From Prevotella sp. (GTDB lineage Bacteria > Bacteroidota > Bacteroidia > Bacteroidales > Muribaculaceae): a stretch of DNA of 34,630 bases. Position 1 is the stretch's first letter. Each line of letters begins with the position of its first letter. Made by a program: the position numbers and the translations under genes. Positions 13,210 through 34,319 of the stretch are shown piece by piece. Location: assembly GCA_023666665.1 (NCBI GenBank), contig JAMPBN010000011.1, positions 1,240-35,869 on the forward strand, in the 5' to 3' direction. The notes beneath the pieces were generated by a model. It worked only from the letters and a program-made list of their open reading frames with translations. It was not told the DNA's origin and searched no databases.

Positions 13210-13281
13210 CGCGGCGTAGAGCAGTGGTAGCTCGTGAGGTTCATTCCCTCAAGGTCGCAGGTTCGAGTCCTGCCGCCGCCA
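13210..13281 (+). tRNA. tRNA-Met(CAT), initiator-like
   Basis: A full cloverleaf folds. The acceptor stem pairs CGCGGCG (13210-13216) with CGCCGCC (13274-13280), with position 1 unpaired (C1xC72). The D stem is GAGC/GCTC, the anticodon stem TGAGG/CCTCA with loop TTCATTC (anticodon CAT), and the T stem GCAGG/CCTGC with loop TTCGAGT. The C1x72 mismatch and the A11-T24 pair are initiator hallmarks, and the D and T arms look like a Bacteroidota fMet tRNA. Oddities: T at position 37 in place of a purine, A29-T41 in place of the third G-C pair of initiators, and a 3' end that reads ACAA, not ACCA, so CCA must be added. It could be a functional phage tRNA or a diverged host copy. Confidence 0.85.
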
Positions 13282-13393
13282 CAACCCAACATAGTGAAAT
13301 ATGATCCGACGGCCACGGCGGCAGCTCACCACAGAGCGCACAAAATGGGTGTATGCGTCAGAGCTGCCCCGCCCGTCACTTTAGACCAACACA

Positions 13394-26719: not shown

Positions 26720-28222
26720 ATGGCTTTTACAACAGAACAGGAGCAGGGCATTATAAACATGCTGGCTGCTTTCAACAACGGAAAGCGCATTAACGACCTG
26801 CCCGAAGCGACAGGCGCGCTTAAAGACATGCACGTCGAGGTTATGGACGAGACGGGCGAGACACACCGCATCGAGCTGGCCAAGGCCGTAGAGCAGGCAG
26901 GCAACCCCATTGCTGGCCGCTATTGGAATGAGGCCAACAACACCTCCACCGCCGCAGGCTATTATGGCAGTCTGTCGGCTCTGCGCGAGCTGCCCACAAA
27001 GTTAGGGCTTGGCCGCTATTTGGTAACTGACGACCGAAAGAAGCGCAAGCTCGACCCATTCGACAGCACACGTTACACCGACGGAAGCCCCGCCGCTCTG
27101 GACGGCACACAGGGACAATGTATGTGGTGCTGGAACGGCTTCATTGCCAACATCTGGAAAGAGGGCAACAACCTGGTCAAGGCTGTAACGTTCAACAAGC
27201 CCGTCGGCAACGGCATAAGTATTAAAATACCCGCTGGCGGTATTTCGTGGCTGGGTGCTGGCGTAATGGATCGCACAAACACCAAGCTGTGCAGTGTTAT
27301 AACCGACGCAGAGCAGTACCGAGGTGGTGGTGGCTCTGCCCTGAACCCTGCAAGCTATGAAAAGGCACCCGCCGCAGACGTGCCTCAAATCACTATGCTG
27401 GGAATGCCCGCCACCAACATAAGCACAACCAATTTTGGTAGTTACGCCCGTAAGCGCGGCGAGGGCTGGGAGGCTAATTGGTTTGTAGCCCGTTTTGTGG
27501 TTGAGTTCCTTTTTGAGGTCATCATGGGCACCGAAAACAGCCAGGCCACATTTAACCCCGAAAAAGACGCTAACGGCCTTTATCAGGGTGGCTTCGGCAC
27601 AGGTGTAACAGACATGCCCGGCTGGGACAAATATAACGGCTATTACCCCATTATCCCTACCAGCGTAGGCGTAGAGGCTGGCGACGGCGTGTGTCTGGTG
27701 CCTTACAGCCTGCCACAGACCGCTGACACCGAGGGCGAGACATACAAGACCTTTAACGTGCCTGTATTCTTTGGCCTGGTAGGTGCTGGCTTTGGCCACC
27801 TCTTTCAATGGGTGCGCGGCCTCATAATGGACGCTGGAGAGGAAAAGTCGCTTGTGTATGTAACCCCCAGCATGTTGGCCGACTACGACCCCAACACCGT
27901 AGCCGACAAGATTCTGGTGGCAGAGTGCCCCCGTGTAAGCGGCTATATCAAGCGCAAGAGCTACCAAGGGCTGTGTTGTATGCCCACCGAGCTGGGAGGC
28001 AGTGCGACCGTTCGTTTTGCCGACTATTTTCATACAAACGTGGACACCTCTAAGGGTCTTCGTGTCCGTGCTGCTGGCGGTAGCGCGGACTATGGTACGT
28101 TTGCGGGCGCGTCGTACACGTATGCGTATCGCACGGCTACGTCTGCGCATGCGAATTACTCCGCGCCCCTCTGCTATTTTGAGGAAGACCCAGAGATCCC
28201 AGAAACGCAGCGCATTGGATAA
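26720..28222 (+). CDS. DGR target: variable tail adhesin with C-type-lectin-like C-terminus
   Basis: This 500-residue protein carries the DGR variable repeat in its last 56 residues (GLRVRAAGGSADYGTFAGAS onward to YSAPLCYFEED). The stretch before it (LGGSATVRFADYFHTNVDTS) looks like the C-type-lectin fold of the BPP-1 Mtd and other DGR targets. The N-terminal part (about 1-80, INMLAAFNNGKRINDLPEAT) would attach to the virion. The central part contains NPEKDANGLYQGGFGTGVTD and tryptophan-rich loops. The protein probably contacts the host surface, with variable surface residues encoded by adenine-rich AAY codons of the template. It ends 17 bases before a short basic ORF and 147 bases before the template repeat. 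Confidence 0.9.
   Translation: MAFTTEQEQGIINMLAAFNNGKRINDLPEATGALKDMHVEVMDETGETHRIELAKAVEQAGNPIAGRYWNEANNTSTAAGYYGSLSALRELPTKLGLGRYLVTDDRKKRKLDPFDSTRYTDGSPAALDGTQGQCMWCWNGFIANIWKEGNNLVKAVTFNKPVGNGISIKIPAGGISWLGAGVMDRTNTKLCSVITDAEQYRGGGGSALNPASYEKAPAADVPQITMLGMPATNISTTNFGSYARKRGEGWEANWFVARFVVEFLFEVIMGTENSQATFNPEKDANGLYQGGFGTGVTDMPGWDKYNGYYPIIPTSVGVEAGDGVCLVPYSLPQTADTEGETYKTFNVPVFFGLVGAGFGHLFQWVRGLIMDAGEEKSLVYVTPSMLADYDPNTVADKILVAECPRVSGYIKRKSYQGLCCMPTELGGSATVRFADYFHTNVDTSKGLRVRAAGGSADYGTFAGASYTYAYRTATSAHANYSAPLCYFEEDPEIPETQRIG
28055..28171 (+). repeat. DGR variable repeat (VR)
   Basis: This 117-base repeat is at the 3' end of the target gene. Aligned to the template at offset 315, it differs at 13 positions, and all 13 are adenines in the template (0 of the 90 non-adenine positions differ). 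The 27-base start and the last 21 bases (GCGAATTACTCC through CCCCTC) are identical. The GC-rich tail would serve as the initiation-of-mutagenic-homing region. Confidence 0.95.
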
Positions 28223-28238
28223 CGAGAATAAATAAAGC

Positions 28239-28370
28239 ATGAACAAGCCCAAGCGGCGGGGCGAAAGCGAAAGCGTCAACCCCGCCGCAGGCGGGCGAAA
28301 ATTTTTAGCTCTGCGAAAACCAAAACGGGCTGCCACGTTTGGCAGCTGGCGGCACCTCTCTGCGTGGTAG
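28239..28370 (+). CDS. Short, strongly basic ORF between target gene and template repeat
   Basis: This 43-codon ORF (starting MNKPKRRGESESVNPAAGG) has about 11 basic and 2 acidic residues. It lies where the Avd accessory protein gene is found in the Bordetella BPP-1 DGR, but it is much shorter than Avd (about 128 residues) and I see no Avd-like helical bundle. The stop codon's last base is the first base of template identity. It may be a real small nucleic-acid-binding peptide, or non-coding DGR RNA. It contains the two hairpins described separately. Confidence 0.35.
   Translation: MNKPKRRGESESVNPAAGGRKFLALRKPKRAATFGSWRHLSAW
28253..28288 (+). repeat. Inverted repeat (hairpin) downstream of the VR
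   Basis: GCGGCGGGG (28253-28261) pairs perfectly with CCCCGCCGC (28280-28288) across an 18-base loop containing CGAAAGCGAAAGCG. DGRs such as that of BPP-1 have a hairpin or cruciform soon after the VR that raises retrohoming. Here it is 82 bases after the VR end, further than in BPP-1. It could also act as a transcription pause. Confidence 0.6.
28329..28346 (+). repeat. Short hairpin upstream of the template repeat
   Basis: GCTGCCA (28329-28335) pairs with TGGCAGC (28340-28346) around a 4-base CGTT loop, 23 bases before the TR. Position and the 7-bp stem/4-base loop shape suggest a structural element of the DGR RNA. Confidence 0.5.
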
Positions 28371-28486
28371 GTCTTCGTGTCCGTGCTGCTGGCGGTAACG
28401 CGAACAATGGTACGAATGCAGGCGCGTCGTACACGAATGCGAATAACACGGCTACGAATGCGAATGCGAATTACTCCGCGCCCCTC
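28370..28486 (+). repeat. DGR template repeat (TR)
   Basis: This 117-base, adenine-containing template is not itself translated in a proper gene. In the VR frame it reads nearly all as Asn AAY codons at the variable sites. It contains 27 adenines, of which 13 have been replaced in the VR. Identity with the VR ends at the CTC at 28484-28486. Confidence 0.95.
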
Positions 28487-28640
28487 AATTTTGCATAAAA
28501 AAGAAATTAGCTATTATGAGGTGAGCCATGCCACAAGGCAAAAAATAACAAGTTAAAAAGGGTGTTAGTAGGGCGTAAGCATTGAAAGCTCCAGAGTATG
28601 CAAAGCAGACTAAAAACGTGCACAAACATTATAACGACAA
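28487..28640 (+). ncRNA. DGR spacer region between TR and reverse transcriptase
   Basis: The 154-base gap holds no ORF. In BPP-1, about 140 bases between TR and RT (the Sp region) prime and fold for cDNA synthesis. The matching length and location make this the likely Sp part of the TR-containing RNA. It is AT-rich with a start at AATTTTGC and a GTTAGTAGGGCG motif in its middle. Confidence 0.6.
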
Positions 28641-30050
28641 ATGAAACGCATAGGCTATCTTTTTGAAAAGGTTTGCGACATGCAAAACCTGCGTTTGGCT
28701 GACATCAATGCAGGCACAGGCAAGGGAGGCCGCCAGGAGGTGGCCAAGTTCCGCGCCGACCTGGAGCACAACCTGGTAGAGATACGGGCGCAGTTGTTAG
28801 GCAAGACCTACACCACGTCCGCATATACCAGCTTTATAAAGCATGAGCCTAAAGAGCGTGTAATTTTCAAACTGCCCTATCGCGACCGCGTGGTGCAGTG
28901 GGCTATAATGCAAGTGCTGGTGGACATCTGGACACCAATTTTTACCCGCGACACATACGCCTGCATTAAGGGGCGCGGTGTGCACTCTTTGCTGGCAAAG
29001 CTGCGCAAGGATCTGCGCCAAGATATCGACGGCACGAAATACTGCTATAAGATAGACATCCGCAAATTTTACCCCTCAATAACTCACAGCATTCTTAAAG
29101 AGGTAGTGCGCCAACGTATCAAAGACCCCGACCTCCTTTGGCTGCTGGATAATATCATCGACAGCGCAGACGGAGTGCCCATTGGTAACTACATAAGCCA
29201 ATATTTCGCAAACTTATACCTGGCCGAGCTTGACCACATCGTCAAGGAACAGTGGGGCGTAAAATATTACTACCGCTATGCCGACGACATTGTGATCCTG
29301 TCAGGCAGTAAAGAGTTCCTGCACGGCATACACACTAAAATGGTGCAATACCTAAAGGAACACAGACGGCTGGAGCTTAAACCGAATTGGCAAATTTTCC
29401 CCGTGGAGGCGCGCGGCATTGATTATGTCGGCTATGTTACCCGACACAGCTATTGTCGTGCCCGTAAGCGCAACAAAAAGGCTCTTTGTAAGGTAGTGGC
29501 CAAGCTGCGACACAAAGGGCTTGCAGGCGAGGAAATAAGGCTCCGTGTGGCTTCGCGACTGGGCTTTATCGTTCATGCAGACAGTAAACATTTAATAAAC
29601 ATTTTAGGCGTGAAAAAATTACACGAAGTAAAGAAAAGCCAGGGGTCAATGATAGGCGACAAATACCACATTGACCATATCATCGGGCGAGAAATCCACC
29701 TGCTGCGCTTTGAGCTTACCCCGTCAAAAATGAATACGGGCGACTGCCTAAAGTTTCAGTATGAAATACAGGAGCAGCTCACCGACGACAAAGGCCAACC
29801 GCTCATCAATAACGGCCAGCCTGTCATGGGCTGGGTGAAGCACATAACCTTTACAGGCTCTAAAACGCTGGCCGAAGACATAGCCGACCTGGACTTGTCC
29901 GAGCCTGTGCAGTGCCAATTAGTACGGCAAAAGTGCGTCGGTAGTAACCGCTGCTTTTACAAGCTGGCAGAATGGGAGGAACCCCAGGCTGCCGCCCCCG
30001 TTCAGGCACCCCAAACAGACAGTATTAACCAACCGTTAACCAACAATTAA
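28641..30050 (+). CDS. DGR reverse transcriptase with C-terminal extension
   Basis: This 469-residue protein has the RT signature: IYRDRVVQWAI-like PYRDRVVQWAIMQVLVDIW (motif 1-2 region), D139 in YKIDIRKFYPSI, the DGR-type SQ (S186-Q187) in PIGNYISQYFANLYLAEL, and YADD at 213-216 in YYRYADDIVIL. The SQ form of motif 4 is typical of DGR RTs, which lack QGXXXSP. The first about 330 residues match the usual DGR RT length. The C-terminal about 125 residues (from about 345) form an additional beta-rich domain (LKFQYEIQEQ, WVKHITFTGSKTLAED) and a proline/alanine tail. It makes adenine-mutagenised cDNA of the TR RNA. Confidence 0.95.
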   Translation: MKRIGYLFEKVCDMQNLRLADINAGTGKGGRQEVAKFRADLEHNLVEIRAQLLGKTYTTSAYTSFIKHEPKERVIFKLPYRDRVVQWAIMQVLVDIWTPIFTRDTYACIKGRGVHSLLAKLRKDLRQDIDGTKYCYKIDIRKFYPSITHSILKEVVRQRIKDPDLLWLLDNIIDSADGVPIGNYISQYFANLYLAELDHIVKEQWGVKYYYRYADDIVILSGSKEFLHGIHTKMVQYLKEHRRLELKPNWQIFPVEARGIDYVGYVTRHSYCRARKRNKKALCKVVAKLRHKGLAGEEIRLRVASRLGFIVHADSKHLINILGVKKLHEVKKSQGSMIGDKYHIDHIIGREIHLLRFELTPSKMNTGDCLKFQYEIQEQLTDDKGQPLINNGQPVMGWVKHITFTGSKTLAEDIADLDLSEPVQCQLVRQKCVGSNRCFYKLAEWEEPQAAAPVQAPQTDSINQPLTNN

Positions 30051-30061
30051 ATAACATCTAA

Positions 30062-30433
30062 ATGGCAACAGCATTTAACCCCCAGCGCCAGGCATACGCC
30101 AAGTATGACGACAAACATTACCTGCTTTTTCTTGACGAGAAAGAGGCAGAACAGACCGACGAGCAGACCCAGCAGACCGTAAAAGGCTACACATACACAG
30201 GCAGCCGCCCCGACGGCTCAACGCTCATCGAAGCCACCGACGTGGACAACACCAACCGCCGCAGCAAGTTTATTGCTGGCCTCATCGGCACAGAATACAC
30301 CCAGGACGACCAAATCGCCCTGCTGGCTAACGGTGAGGACACCAACGAGCATGCCGAGGAGCTGGCTATTTTCCACGCAAACCGCAAAATGGCAAAACAG
30401 GCCGTAGACGAATTGCTATCCCGTAACATCTAA
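30062..30433 (+). CDS. Small tail-operon protein downstream of the RT
   Basis: This 123-residue protein is rich in acidic residues, with TYTGSRPDGSTLIEATDVDN, RRSKFIAGLIGTEYTQDDQI and HANRKMAKQAVDELLSRNI. It appears alpha/beta with a helical C-terminus. Family not recognised. It is located 11 bases after the RT and 10 before the baseplate gene, so it is either a DGR-associated protein or a baseplate accessory. Its position could be tested by looking for it in related phages without a DGR. Confidence 0.6.
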   Translation: MATAFNPQRQAYAKYDDKHYLLFLDEKEAEQTDEQTQQTVKGYTYTGSRPDGSTLIEATDVDNTNRRSKFIAGLIGTEYTQDDQIALLANGEDTNEHAEELAIFHANRKMAKQAVDELLSRNI

Positions 30434-33485: not shown

Positions 33486-34319
33486 ATGAAAAAGGCTTTT
33501 AAGACTTCGCCCTTGCCATTCAGAGGGCAAAAAAGGTATTACATTAAGCGGTTTGCGTCTGTGCTGGCACGCTGCGAAGACATTACAACAGTCGTCGACC
33601 TTTTCGGCGGCTCTGGCCTGCTTTCGCGTGTCGCAAAAGATCAGCTGCCGAATGCCCGCGTAATTTATAATGACTTCGACCGCTTCGACAAACGTGTGGC
33701 AAATATAGACCGCACAAATGCGCTTTGCGCACAAATTGCGCCGCTTGTCGCAGGTGTCGCAGATAATAAGCGAATACCTGACGAAATAAAGCAGCAGTGT
33801 TTGCAGCTTATGCGTGAAAGTGAAAAGACAGGAGCAGTCGATTATATAACGCTTTCTGCTTCGCTGCTCTTTTCAGGTAATTGGGCGACAAGTTACGACC
33901 AATTCGCAAAGCAAACGTTTTATAACAGAGCTGTAAATAGTCATTATGATGCAACAGGTTACTTTGACGGCCTGGAAATAACACATAAAGACTACCGTGA
34001 ATTGTTCGACGAGTTCAAAGACCTGCAAAACGTGCTTTTTATTCTGGATCCACCATATTTGCAGACAGAATGCAGCGCGTATAAAAGCGACACATATTGG
34101 CAGCTAAAAGATTATTTAGACGTGTTAAACATGCTGAAAGGCACAAAATATGTGTTTTTCACCTCTGGAAAGTCGCAAATTATTGACCTTTGCAAGTGGA
34201 TAAACCAAAACTTTCCAAATGCAGAACTGCTTAAAGGAGCAGAGCTTTGGGAGCAAAACAGCAGAGTAAACGACTTTAACAGCTATAAAGACATTATGAT
34301 TGCGAAAGTAACAGCATAA
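33486..34319 (+). CDS. D12-class N6-adenine DNA methyltransferase (Dam-like)
   Basis: This 277-residue enzyme shows the class motifs: PLPFRGQKRYYIKRF (N-terminal motif X), DLFGGSGLL (D38-L46, motif I, SAM binding) and LDPPYLQTE (DPPY at 188-191, motif IV, catalytic). NFPNAELLKGAELWEQNSRV lies near the C-terminus. It would methylate adenine in phage DNA, protecting it from host restriction. Mu carries its DNA-modification gene mom at the same right-end location. The gene is clearly more AT-rich than the late operon, suggesting recent acquisition. No restriction enzyme partner is seen, so it is an orphan methylase. Confidence 0.9.
   Translation: MKKAFKTSPLPFRGQKRYYIKRFASVLARCEDITTVVDLFGGSGLLSRVAKDQLPNARVIYNDFDRFDKRVANIDRTNALCAQIAPLVAGVADNKRIPDEIKQQCLQLMRESEKTGAVDYITLSASLLFSGNWATSYDQFAKQTFYNRAVNSHYDATGYFDGLEITHKDYRELFDEFKDLQNVLFILDPPYLQTECSAYKSDTYWQLKDYLDVLNMLKGTKYVFFTSGKSQIIDLCKWINQNFPNAELLKGAELWEQNSRVNDFNSYKDIMIAKVTA

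What the first reader, a model, noticed from the sequence alone, without database searches (positions are those of the whole stretch)
28055..30050. Complete, apparently active diversity-generating retroelement in a tail adhesin cassette
VR and TR (each 117 bases, offset 315) differ at 13 positions, all at TR adenines, out of 27 adenines. None of the 90 other positions differ. In the VR frame the changes convert Asn (AAY) codons to S, D, Y, F, Y, Y, R, S and H (one change is silent), leaving the framework codons untouched. RT with the DGR-type SQ motif, a spacer of BPP-1-like length and a C-lectin-type target are all present and intact, so the phage can vary its receptor-binding protein.
Basis: partly seen in the sequence, partly recalled or inferred. 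Interest (0 to 1): 0.85.

Follow-up and report, generated by a model that had tools for sequence, protein, structure and literature searches.

The report
Prophage tail-gene mutator without Avd
A prophage in a gut Prevotella-type bacterium carries a complete mutation machine that rewrites a tail protein, and it may use an unusual OB-fold-like helper domain, attached to its reverse transcriptase, in place of the usual helper protein Avd.

Summary
VR (28055-28171) and TR (28370-28486) differ at 13 positions, all TR adenines (P = 3e-10). The RT is 29% identical to BPP-1 Brt, and Rfam RT-17 RNA lies between TR and RT. Close relatives are active: the same prophage in Xylanibacter caecicola and X. 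rodentium differs at 22 of 11,085 bases, 19 of them in the 117-base VR (18 at TR adenines), with identical TRs.

The cassette is not BPP-1-like throughout. It has no Avd. The RT instead has a C-terminal extension, distantly related to phrog_19665 ('unknown function'). In other Bacteroidales DGRs that family is a separate gene in the Avd position or the end of the RT (hankyphage). The 80 viral loci kept of 141 found with this family alone all have a DGR RT or TR/VR beside it. No cassette examined had both it and bAvd. Its model is OB-like, with weak matches to ssDNA-binding proteins. I propose it replaces Avd. The window's own kinship to it is indirect and its function inferred. A C-type lectin fold of the target was not shown. 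The DGR is a known kind; the accessory is the new variant.

The parts
26720..28222 (+). Target gene: 500-aa tail protein whose C-terminal part carries the VR
   Evidence: ORF; phrog_5302 'tail protein' 6.4e-55; 89/85/76% identical to targets of L003/L125/L010
28055..28171 (+). Variable repeat (VR)
   Evidence: 117 bases, 13 differences from TR, all at TR adenines
28253..28288 (+). GC-rich hairpin between the target stop codon and TR (stem GCGGCGGGG/CCCCGCCGC); terminator or DGR RNA element, not tested
   Evidence: sequence; a similar GC-rich hairpin in L003, L006, L125, L011
28329..28346 (+). 7-bp hairpin (GCTGCCA/TGGCAGC) 23 nt upstream of TR, perhaps in the 5' leader of the DGR RNA (inferred)
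   Evidence: sequence; present in the window and in L003, L006, L125, L011; not in L010
28370..28486 (+). Template repeat (TR); its Asn codons are all AAY, so A changes in them cannot make stop codons
28524..28612 (+). RT-17 RNA (Rfam RF03020) in the TR-RT spacer
   Evidence: 52.9 bits, cut-off 40.4; over cut-off in 5 of 15 other loci scanned (L003, L006, L007, L010, L011), all window-type
28641..29621 (+). DGR reverse transcriptase core, residues 1-327
   Evidence: Pfam RVT_1 4.9e-20; phrog_1423; PDB 8ub7 = BPP-1 Brt; SQ motif
29622..30047 (+). C-terminal extension of the RT (residues 328-469), proposed OB-like accessory domain distantly related to phrog_19665
   Evidence: no direct PHROG hit; profile link only through L143 and L010; hhalign Prob 39.9, P 3e-4, co-linear; predicted strand order b-b-b-a-b-b after two short strands, low confidence

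Best explanation
This is a working diversity-generating retroelement in a Mu-like transposable prophage of a Prevotellaceae host. The TR and its structured RT-17 spacer are transcribed. The RT copies the RNA with errors at adenines. The cDNA replaces the VR near the 3' end of the tail-protein gene, so that protein changes while TR stays fixed. It has no Avd. An OB-like domain, at the RT C-terminus here and a separate gene in the Avd position in related phages, most likely does Avd's job by holding the RNA template or the single-stranded cDNA. Shown: the repeat pattern, the RT type, the RNA element, recent VR-only divergence in close relatives, absence of bAvd, and linkage of the accessory family to DGRs. 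Inferred: the mechanism by analogy with BPP-1, activity of this exact copy, that the extension belongs to the accessory family (indirect evidence), and its role.
For: 13 of 13 VR differences at TR adenines. RT 29% identical to BPP-1 Brt. RT-17 RNA. Natural experiments: L124 vs L125, 22 differences in 11,085 bases, 19 in VR (18 at TR-A), TR identical; L007 vs L008, 20 in 6,682, 19 in VR, all at TR-A. Accessory family: 80 of 80 loci kept (of 141) beside a DGR RT or TR/VR (66 both, 11 RT only, 3 TR/VR only where the locus ends; five of the 80 are seed contigs again). In 297 family genomes, 36 of 39 accessory places have an RT beside or fused. bAvd over cut-off in 0 of 28 records, then in 1 of 5, the one being the BPP-1 control. 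Four loci in the family with a bAvd match and an RT have no OB accessory (two of the four under the bAvd cut-off). Hankyphage, whose RT ends in the family's domain, has a DGR shown active in culture (PMC12135933, passages).
Confidence: 0.75

Rival explanations
1. An ordinary DGR in which the RT extension is a lineage-specific tail with no role in mutagenesis, and the host or no protein supplies the Avd function.
For: Avd-less DGRs are described (PMC7290462, passages). 27 of 59 RT places in the family lack phrog_19665 nearby. Some relatives have RTs that end near residue 332. The window's kinship to phrog_19665 is weak.
Against: The family recurs as a stand-alone gene between VR and TR and as an RT C-terminus, with 80 of 80 kept loci DGR-linked. 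The extension is kept with the RT in L003-L010, L124, L125 and L143.
Confidence: 0.27
2. A decayed DGR: an old A-biased VR frozen in a prophage that is no longer active.
For: Activity of this exact copy was not measured; no reads were available.
Against: Target and RT ORFs are intact, there is no non-A mismatch in 117 bases, and close relatives show VR-only divergence on otherwise near-identical DNA.
Confidence: 0.06
3. A chance or duplication repeat with an unrelated RT (group II, retron or defence RT) next to it.
For: NCBIfam and PADLOC list group II, retron and DRT models for this RT; the NCBIfam ones are all under their cut-offs.
Against: Adenine-only mismatches, A-type TR/VR in 33 of 36 viral relatives, BPP-1 Brt as best PDB match, RT-17 RNA.
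Confidence: 0.01

Closest known systems
Bordetella phage BPP-1 DGR
   Same: Order target(VR)-TR-RT, adenine-specific VR changes, spacer length (144 vs 154 nt), RT core 29% identical
   Different: BPP-1 has Avd between VR and TR (PF22296, 123 bits) and no phrog_19665 match; the window has no Avd and its RT is 469 aa against 328
Hankyphage (Bacteroides phage p00) DGR
   Same: Transposable phage of Bacteroidales (PMC6199706, PMC12135933, passages), repeats annotated as 116 bases (117 in the 2018 paper), RT with C-terminal extension, no bAvd match, methyltransferase gene downstream
   Different: RT 33% identical over 71% of the query; its extension matches phrog_19665 clearly (3e-18), the window's does not; the 2025 paper's figure legend names an Avd, whose identity I did not determine
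Lineage-3 DGRs of crAss-like phages (crAssphage LMMB)
   Same: TG-VR-TR-RT with no avd (PMC7290462, passages); RT 44% identical
   Different: Different phage group; the LMMB RT extension gave no convincing profile match
RT-17 RNA (Rfam RF03020)
   Same: Match over cut-off at 28524-28612
   Different: Function not tested; the paper I believe described it was not held and searches for its name found none

Membership tests
Diversity-generating retroelement | TR/VR pair with mismatches at TR adenines | tested here: met
   13 of 13
Diversity-generating retroelement | RT of DGR type with [ILV]GxxxSQ motif | tested here: met
   IGNYISQ at 181; best PDB match BPP-1 Brt; no tree was built
Diversity-generating retroelement | VR inside a target ORF, TR outside it near the RT | tested here: met
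Diversity-generating retroelement | VR hypervariable while TR is fixed among close relatives | tested here: met
   met in relatives with 82% RT identity to the window; not measured for the window copy
Diversity-generating retroelement | C-type lectin fold of the variable domain | tested here: inconclusive
   no sequence match; no structure was predicted, both jobs went to the accessory
Avd-type DGR (BPP-1 type) | bAvd gene in the cassette | tested here: not met
   147 nt between target stop and TR, no listed ORF lies in it; bAvd in G000 only as two sub-cut-off matches on other contigs
phrog_19665 accessory family | Profile match of the window's extension | tested here: not met
   no direct match; only an indirect link by L143 and L010, so I call it distantly related, not a member
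phrog_19665 accessory family | Genetic linkage to a DGR | tested here: met
   the extension is part of a DGR RT; the family itself is DGR-linked in 80 of 80 kept loci
OB fold | Five strands and one helix in order b-b-b-a-b-b, matching known OB folds | tested here: inconclusive

The most novel reading that the evidence does not exclude
DGRs of Bacteroidales phages run on a dedicated OB-fold cofactor that replaces Avd. It exists as a free gene in the Avd slot, as a gene after the RT, or as the end of the RT, and does not occur together with Avd. It would be a second, independently recruited solution for handling the template RNA or mutagenised cDNA during retrohoming; the window holds a diverged, RT-fused form.
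Probability: 0.48. Interest if true: 0.75.

Novelty: new variant of a known kind. Interest (0 to 1): 0.57.

Why it matters
Avd is described as essential for cDNA synthesis in BPP-1 (PMC6642488, passages), yet about a quarter of DGRs are reported without a homologue of the accessory gene (PMC7290462, passages). If an OB-type cofactor fills part of that gap, the question of what Avd does becomes testable by comparing two unrelated helpers, in a laboratory phage (hankyphage) whose DGR is already shown active in culture. The two Xylanibacter lysogens also give a clean natural record: near-identical prophages in two host species that differ almost only at DGR-targeted adenines.

Tried and rejected
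Helix between TR end and spacer end: TTTTGCAT/ATGCAAA folds in 5 of 6 window-type spacers (not L125), but over 72 unique loci duplex energies were no better than shuffles (mean z 0.02; 4 of 72 at p <= 0.05). Not claimed.

Profile comparison of the window extension with the stand-alone accessories failed (hhalign Prob 1.3; 0.6). Only the set of eight hankyphage-type extensions plus the L015 gene gave Prob 39.9. In one search the window's RT was not listed at E <= 50 until its kin L143 and L010 were added. The crAssphage LMMB extension gave nothing convincing.

PDB sequence search with the accessory profile gave nothing below E = 0.07; Pfam gave nothing better than E = 0.02, in one of five members. 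RT-17 was not found in 9 of the 15 loci; a tenth, L002, has RT-3 instead.

C-type lectin fold of the target: no sequence evidence.

Literature: Wu 2018 and the paper I believe described RT-17 are not held. PMC10053308 (passages and section 4 part 1) says one DGR-associated protein has no Pfam or CDD entry; it may be this family, so I do not claim that the family is unreported. Searches for DGR with OB-fold and with single-stranded DNA-binding listed no paper whose title or abstract start concerns such an accessory. The other papers (PMC8144416, PMC7290462, PMC6199706, PMC6642488, PMC12135933, PMC8143477, PMC7159879, PMC10743442, PMC12386605) were seen as passages only.

My TR/VR detector tolerates mismatches at TR-A, so its pooled count (1146 of 1183 at A in 72 unique loci) is biased; the decisive figures are those, which use no such filter.

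Full report
What is there. VR 28055-28171 and TR 28370-28486 are 117 bases, offset 315, and differ at 13 positions, all at the 27 TR adenines (P = 3.2e-10). Nine of ten Asn codons are changed and one further change is silent. VR is near the 3' end of a 500-aa ORF (26720-28222) that matches PHROG 'tail protein' phrog_5302. The RT ORF 28641-30050 is intact, matches RVT_1 and phrog_1423 (3.6e-112); its best PDB match is 8ub7 (8.6e-35, next best 1.2e-14), which is BPP-1 Brt. Brt aligns to residues 2-322 at 29% identity. The RT has IGNYISQ and YADD. Rfam RT-17 lies at 28524-28612 between TR and RT (52.9 bits, cut-off 40.4) and is also found in 5 of 15 other loci scanned.

Setting. The window is G000:C2:1240-35869 of a 2.16-Mb genome. 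PHROG matches include a transposase, a DNA transposition protein, portal, terminase, major head protein, tail sheath, baseplate hub and tape measure, so this reads as a Mu-like contractile-tailed prophage. The nearest named relatives are in Xylanibacter caecicola and X. rodentium (82% RT identity); the host of the window itself is unnamed. The right 14.6 kb has no megablast match in 50,697 phage records.

Activity. Of 36 viral relatives found by the RT, 33 have an A-type TR/VR by my detector and 3 (L015, L035, L038) do not. Close pairs are the best test, since no filter is applied. L124 (X. caecicola) and L125 (X. rodentium): 22 differences in the first 11,085 bases, 19 in VR, 18 of those at TR-A; TR identical; beyond that the sequences stop matching, probably the prophage end. 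L007 and L008: 20 in 6,682, 19 in VR, all at TR-A. L125 and L007 are identical over 11,086. The window differs from L005 at 17 VR positions, 16 at TR-A, and at 2 TR positions, but there the rest of the DNA differs too (105 of 1,389 in the RT). So DGRs of this type act in nature; for the window's own copy this is an inference.

What is unusual. There are 147 nt between the target's stop codon and TR, with no room for Avd, and the RT is 469 aa against 328 in BPP-1. In relatives L012, L013, L014, L016, L017 and L031 a 113-122-aa gene sits between target and TR, the Avd position, and their RTs are 331-354 aa. A profile of these six, run over 1,532 ORFs, hits the C-terminus of a second DGR RT in the window's own genome (L002, 8.7e-15), a gene two places after the RT in L037 (3e-7) and the gene after the RT in L015 (4e-4). 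In phages, tblastn of the L017 gene matches 29 of 50,697 records: 21 of hankyphage type (19 annotated there as reverse transcriptase, 2 records unannotated), 2 annotated RTs (BS-TP4, BKO1-TP3) and 6 'hypothetical protein' genes of LoVEphage type. In the one LoVEphage record looked at, the RT lies in pieces and the domain is on the last piece. The family is phrog_19665, 'unknown function': it matches 5 of 5 stand-alone genes and 7 of 10 further proteins, not the window's extension, L010 or crAssphage LMMB. No Pfam match.

Linkage. A search of viral contigs with the accessory alone found 141 loci; the 80 kept all have a DGR beside it: 66 RT and TR/VR, 11 RT only, 3 TR/VR only where the locus ends; five are seed contigs again (L044, L045, L051, L053, L121). 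In 297 genomes of the bacterial family, 26 carry it, in 39 places. 32 have an RT within 1.5 kb and four more have one in the fetched locus (L163, L181, L186, L191): 36 of 39. L185 is at a contig end without RT, and two places were not examined. In 395 genomes of the phylum, 2 carry it: the window's own and one of the same order, the second also beside an RT (L226).

Exclusivity. bAvd (PF22296) is over cut-off in 0 of 28 records holding RT relatives with or without the accessory, many of them fragments; one weak match lies in a host genome. In a further 5 it is over cut-off only in the BPP-1 control; the window's genome and L125's have sub-cut-off matches. BPP-1 has no phrog_19665. In the family, none of 59 RT places has a bAvd match within 1.5 kb. 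Of 30 bAvd loci fetched there, 4 have an RT (L196, L198 over the bAvd cut-off; L208, L216 under it) and none has the OB accessory. Against this, 27 of the 59 RT places have no phrog_19665 nearby, the window's among them.

Is the window's extension the same domain? It has no PHROG match. hhalign of window-type extensions against eight hankyphage-type ones plus the L015 gene gives Prob 39.9, P 3e-4, co-linear over 83 columns; against the stand-alone set it fails. In a pool of 8,781 ORFs plus reversed decoys, L143, an RT fragment from the same genus 51% identical to the window over residues 262-447, scores E 0.008, and L010 0.26, both ahead of the best decoy (1.1); the window's own RT is not listed at E <= 50. 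With those two added it scores 1.5e-8, which is partly circular since they are its kin. Predicted strand order agrees (b-b-b-a-b-b), but the window model is poor (pLDDT 52.6; stand-alone 87). I put the kinship at about 0.75; it is not a tested membership.

Fold. The three viral-library matches of the stand-alone model under E 0.001 are proteins named as RT or intron-encoded protein (2.3e-6 to 5.9e-4). PDB matches are weak; many of the top rows are ssDNA-binding proteins (SSB, PRD1 P12, LEF-3, Teb1, PriB, RPA70N; that they are OB folds is partly recalled), mixed with DNA polymerase epsilon, chromatin remodellers, transthyretin and bacterial toxin subunits. This is a hint of an OB fold, not proof.

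Mechanism. By analogy with BPP-1 (established, not tested here), TR RNA is copied by the RT with adenine errors and the cDNA replaces VR. The accessory most likely binds RNA or ssDNA, as a free subunit or tethered to the RT. The acidic pI of the window's extension (5.5) argues against simple charge-driven binding.

Known and new. Avd-less lineages are in print (PMC7290462, passages). HRDC and MSL are other accessories and one further DGR-associated protein lacks any Pfam (PMC10053308, passages and section 4 part 1). Hankyphage DGR activity is in print (PMC12135933, passages). Wu 2018, which I recall reporting new accessory genes, was not readable, so whether the family is unreported is uncertain.

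Noticed in passing
L002 (G000:C22), whole locus: A second, different DGR in the same genome: RT 34% identical to the window's over residues 1-292, 17 VR/TR differences all at TR-A, Rfam RT-3 RNA near the RT start, and a clear phrog_19665 domain at the RT end.
   Followed up: partly
L003 4732-4848 against L004 4732-4848: Two contigs identical in VR, RT and 1,300 bases of target differ at 5 TR positions, where L003's TR carries the VR bases: VR-to-TR conversion or an assembly chimera.
   Followed up: no
window 30062-30433: A 123-aa ORF just after the RT; L010 has a 123-aa ORF at the same place that looks alike by eye, and small ORFs follow the RT in other relatives. No family match over cut-off.
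   Followed up: no
L019 6413-6844, L023 6432-6818, L037 6433-6846: A second small family (phrog_29953), two genes after the RT in L019 and L023 and after a fused RT in L037, also matches phrog_19665 (1.2e-10 to 1.8e-4); perhaps the same accessory further away.
   Followed up: partly
window 13210-13282: tRNA-Met gene inside the prophage, between the minus-strand packaging genes and the plus-strand head genes.
   Followed up: no
window 33486-34319: D12-class adenine DNA methyltransferase-like gene near the right end of the window; hankyphage also has an N6 methyltransferase downstream of its DGR.
   Followed up: no
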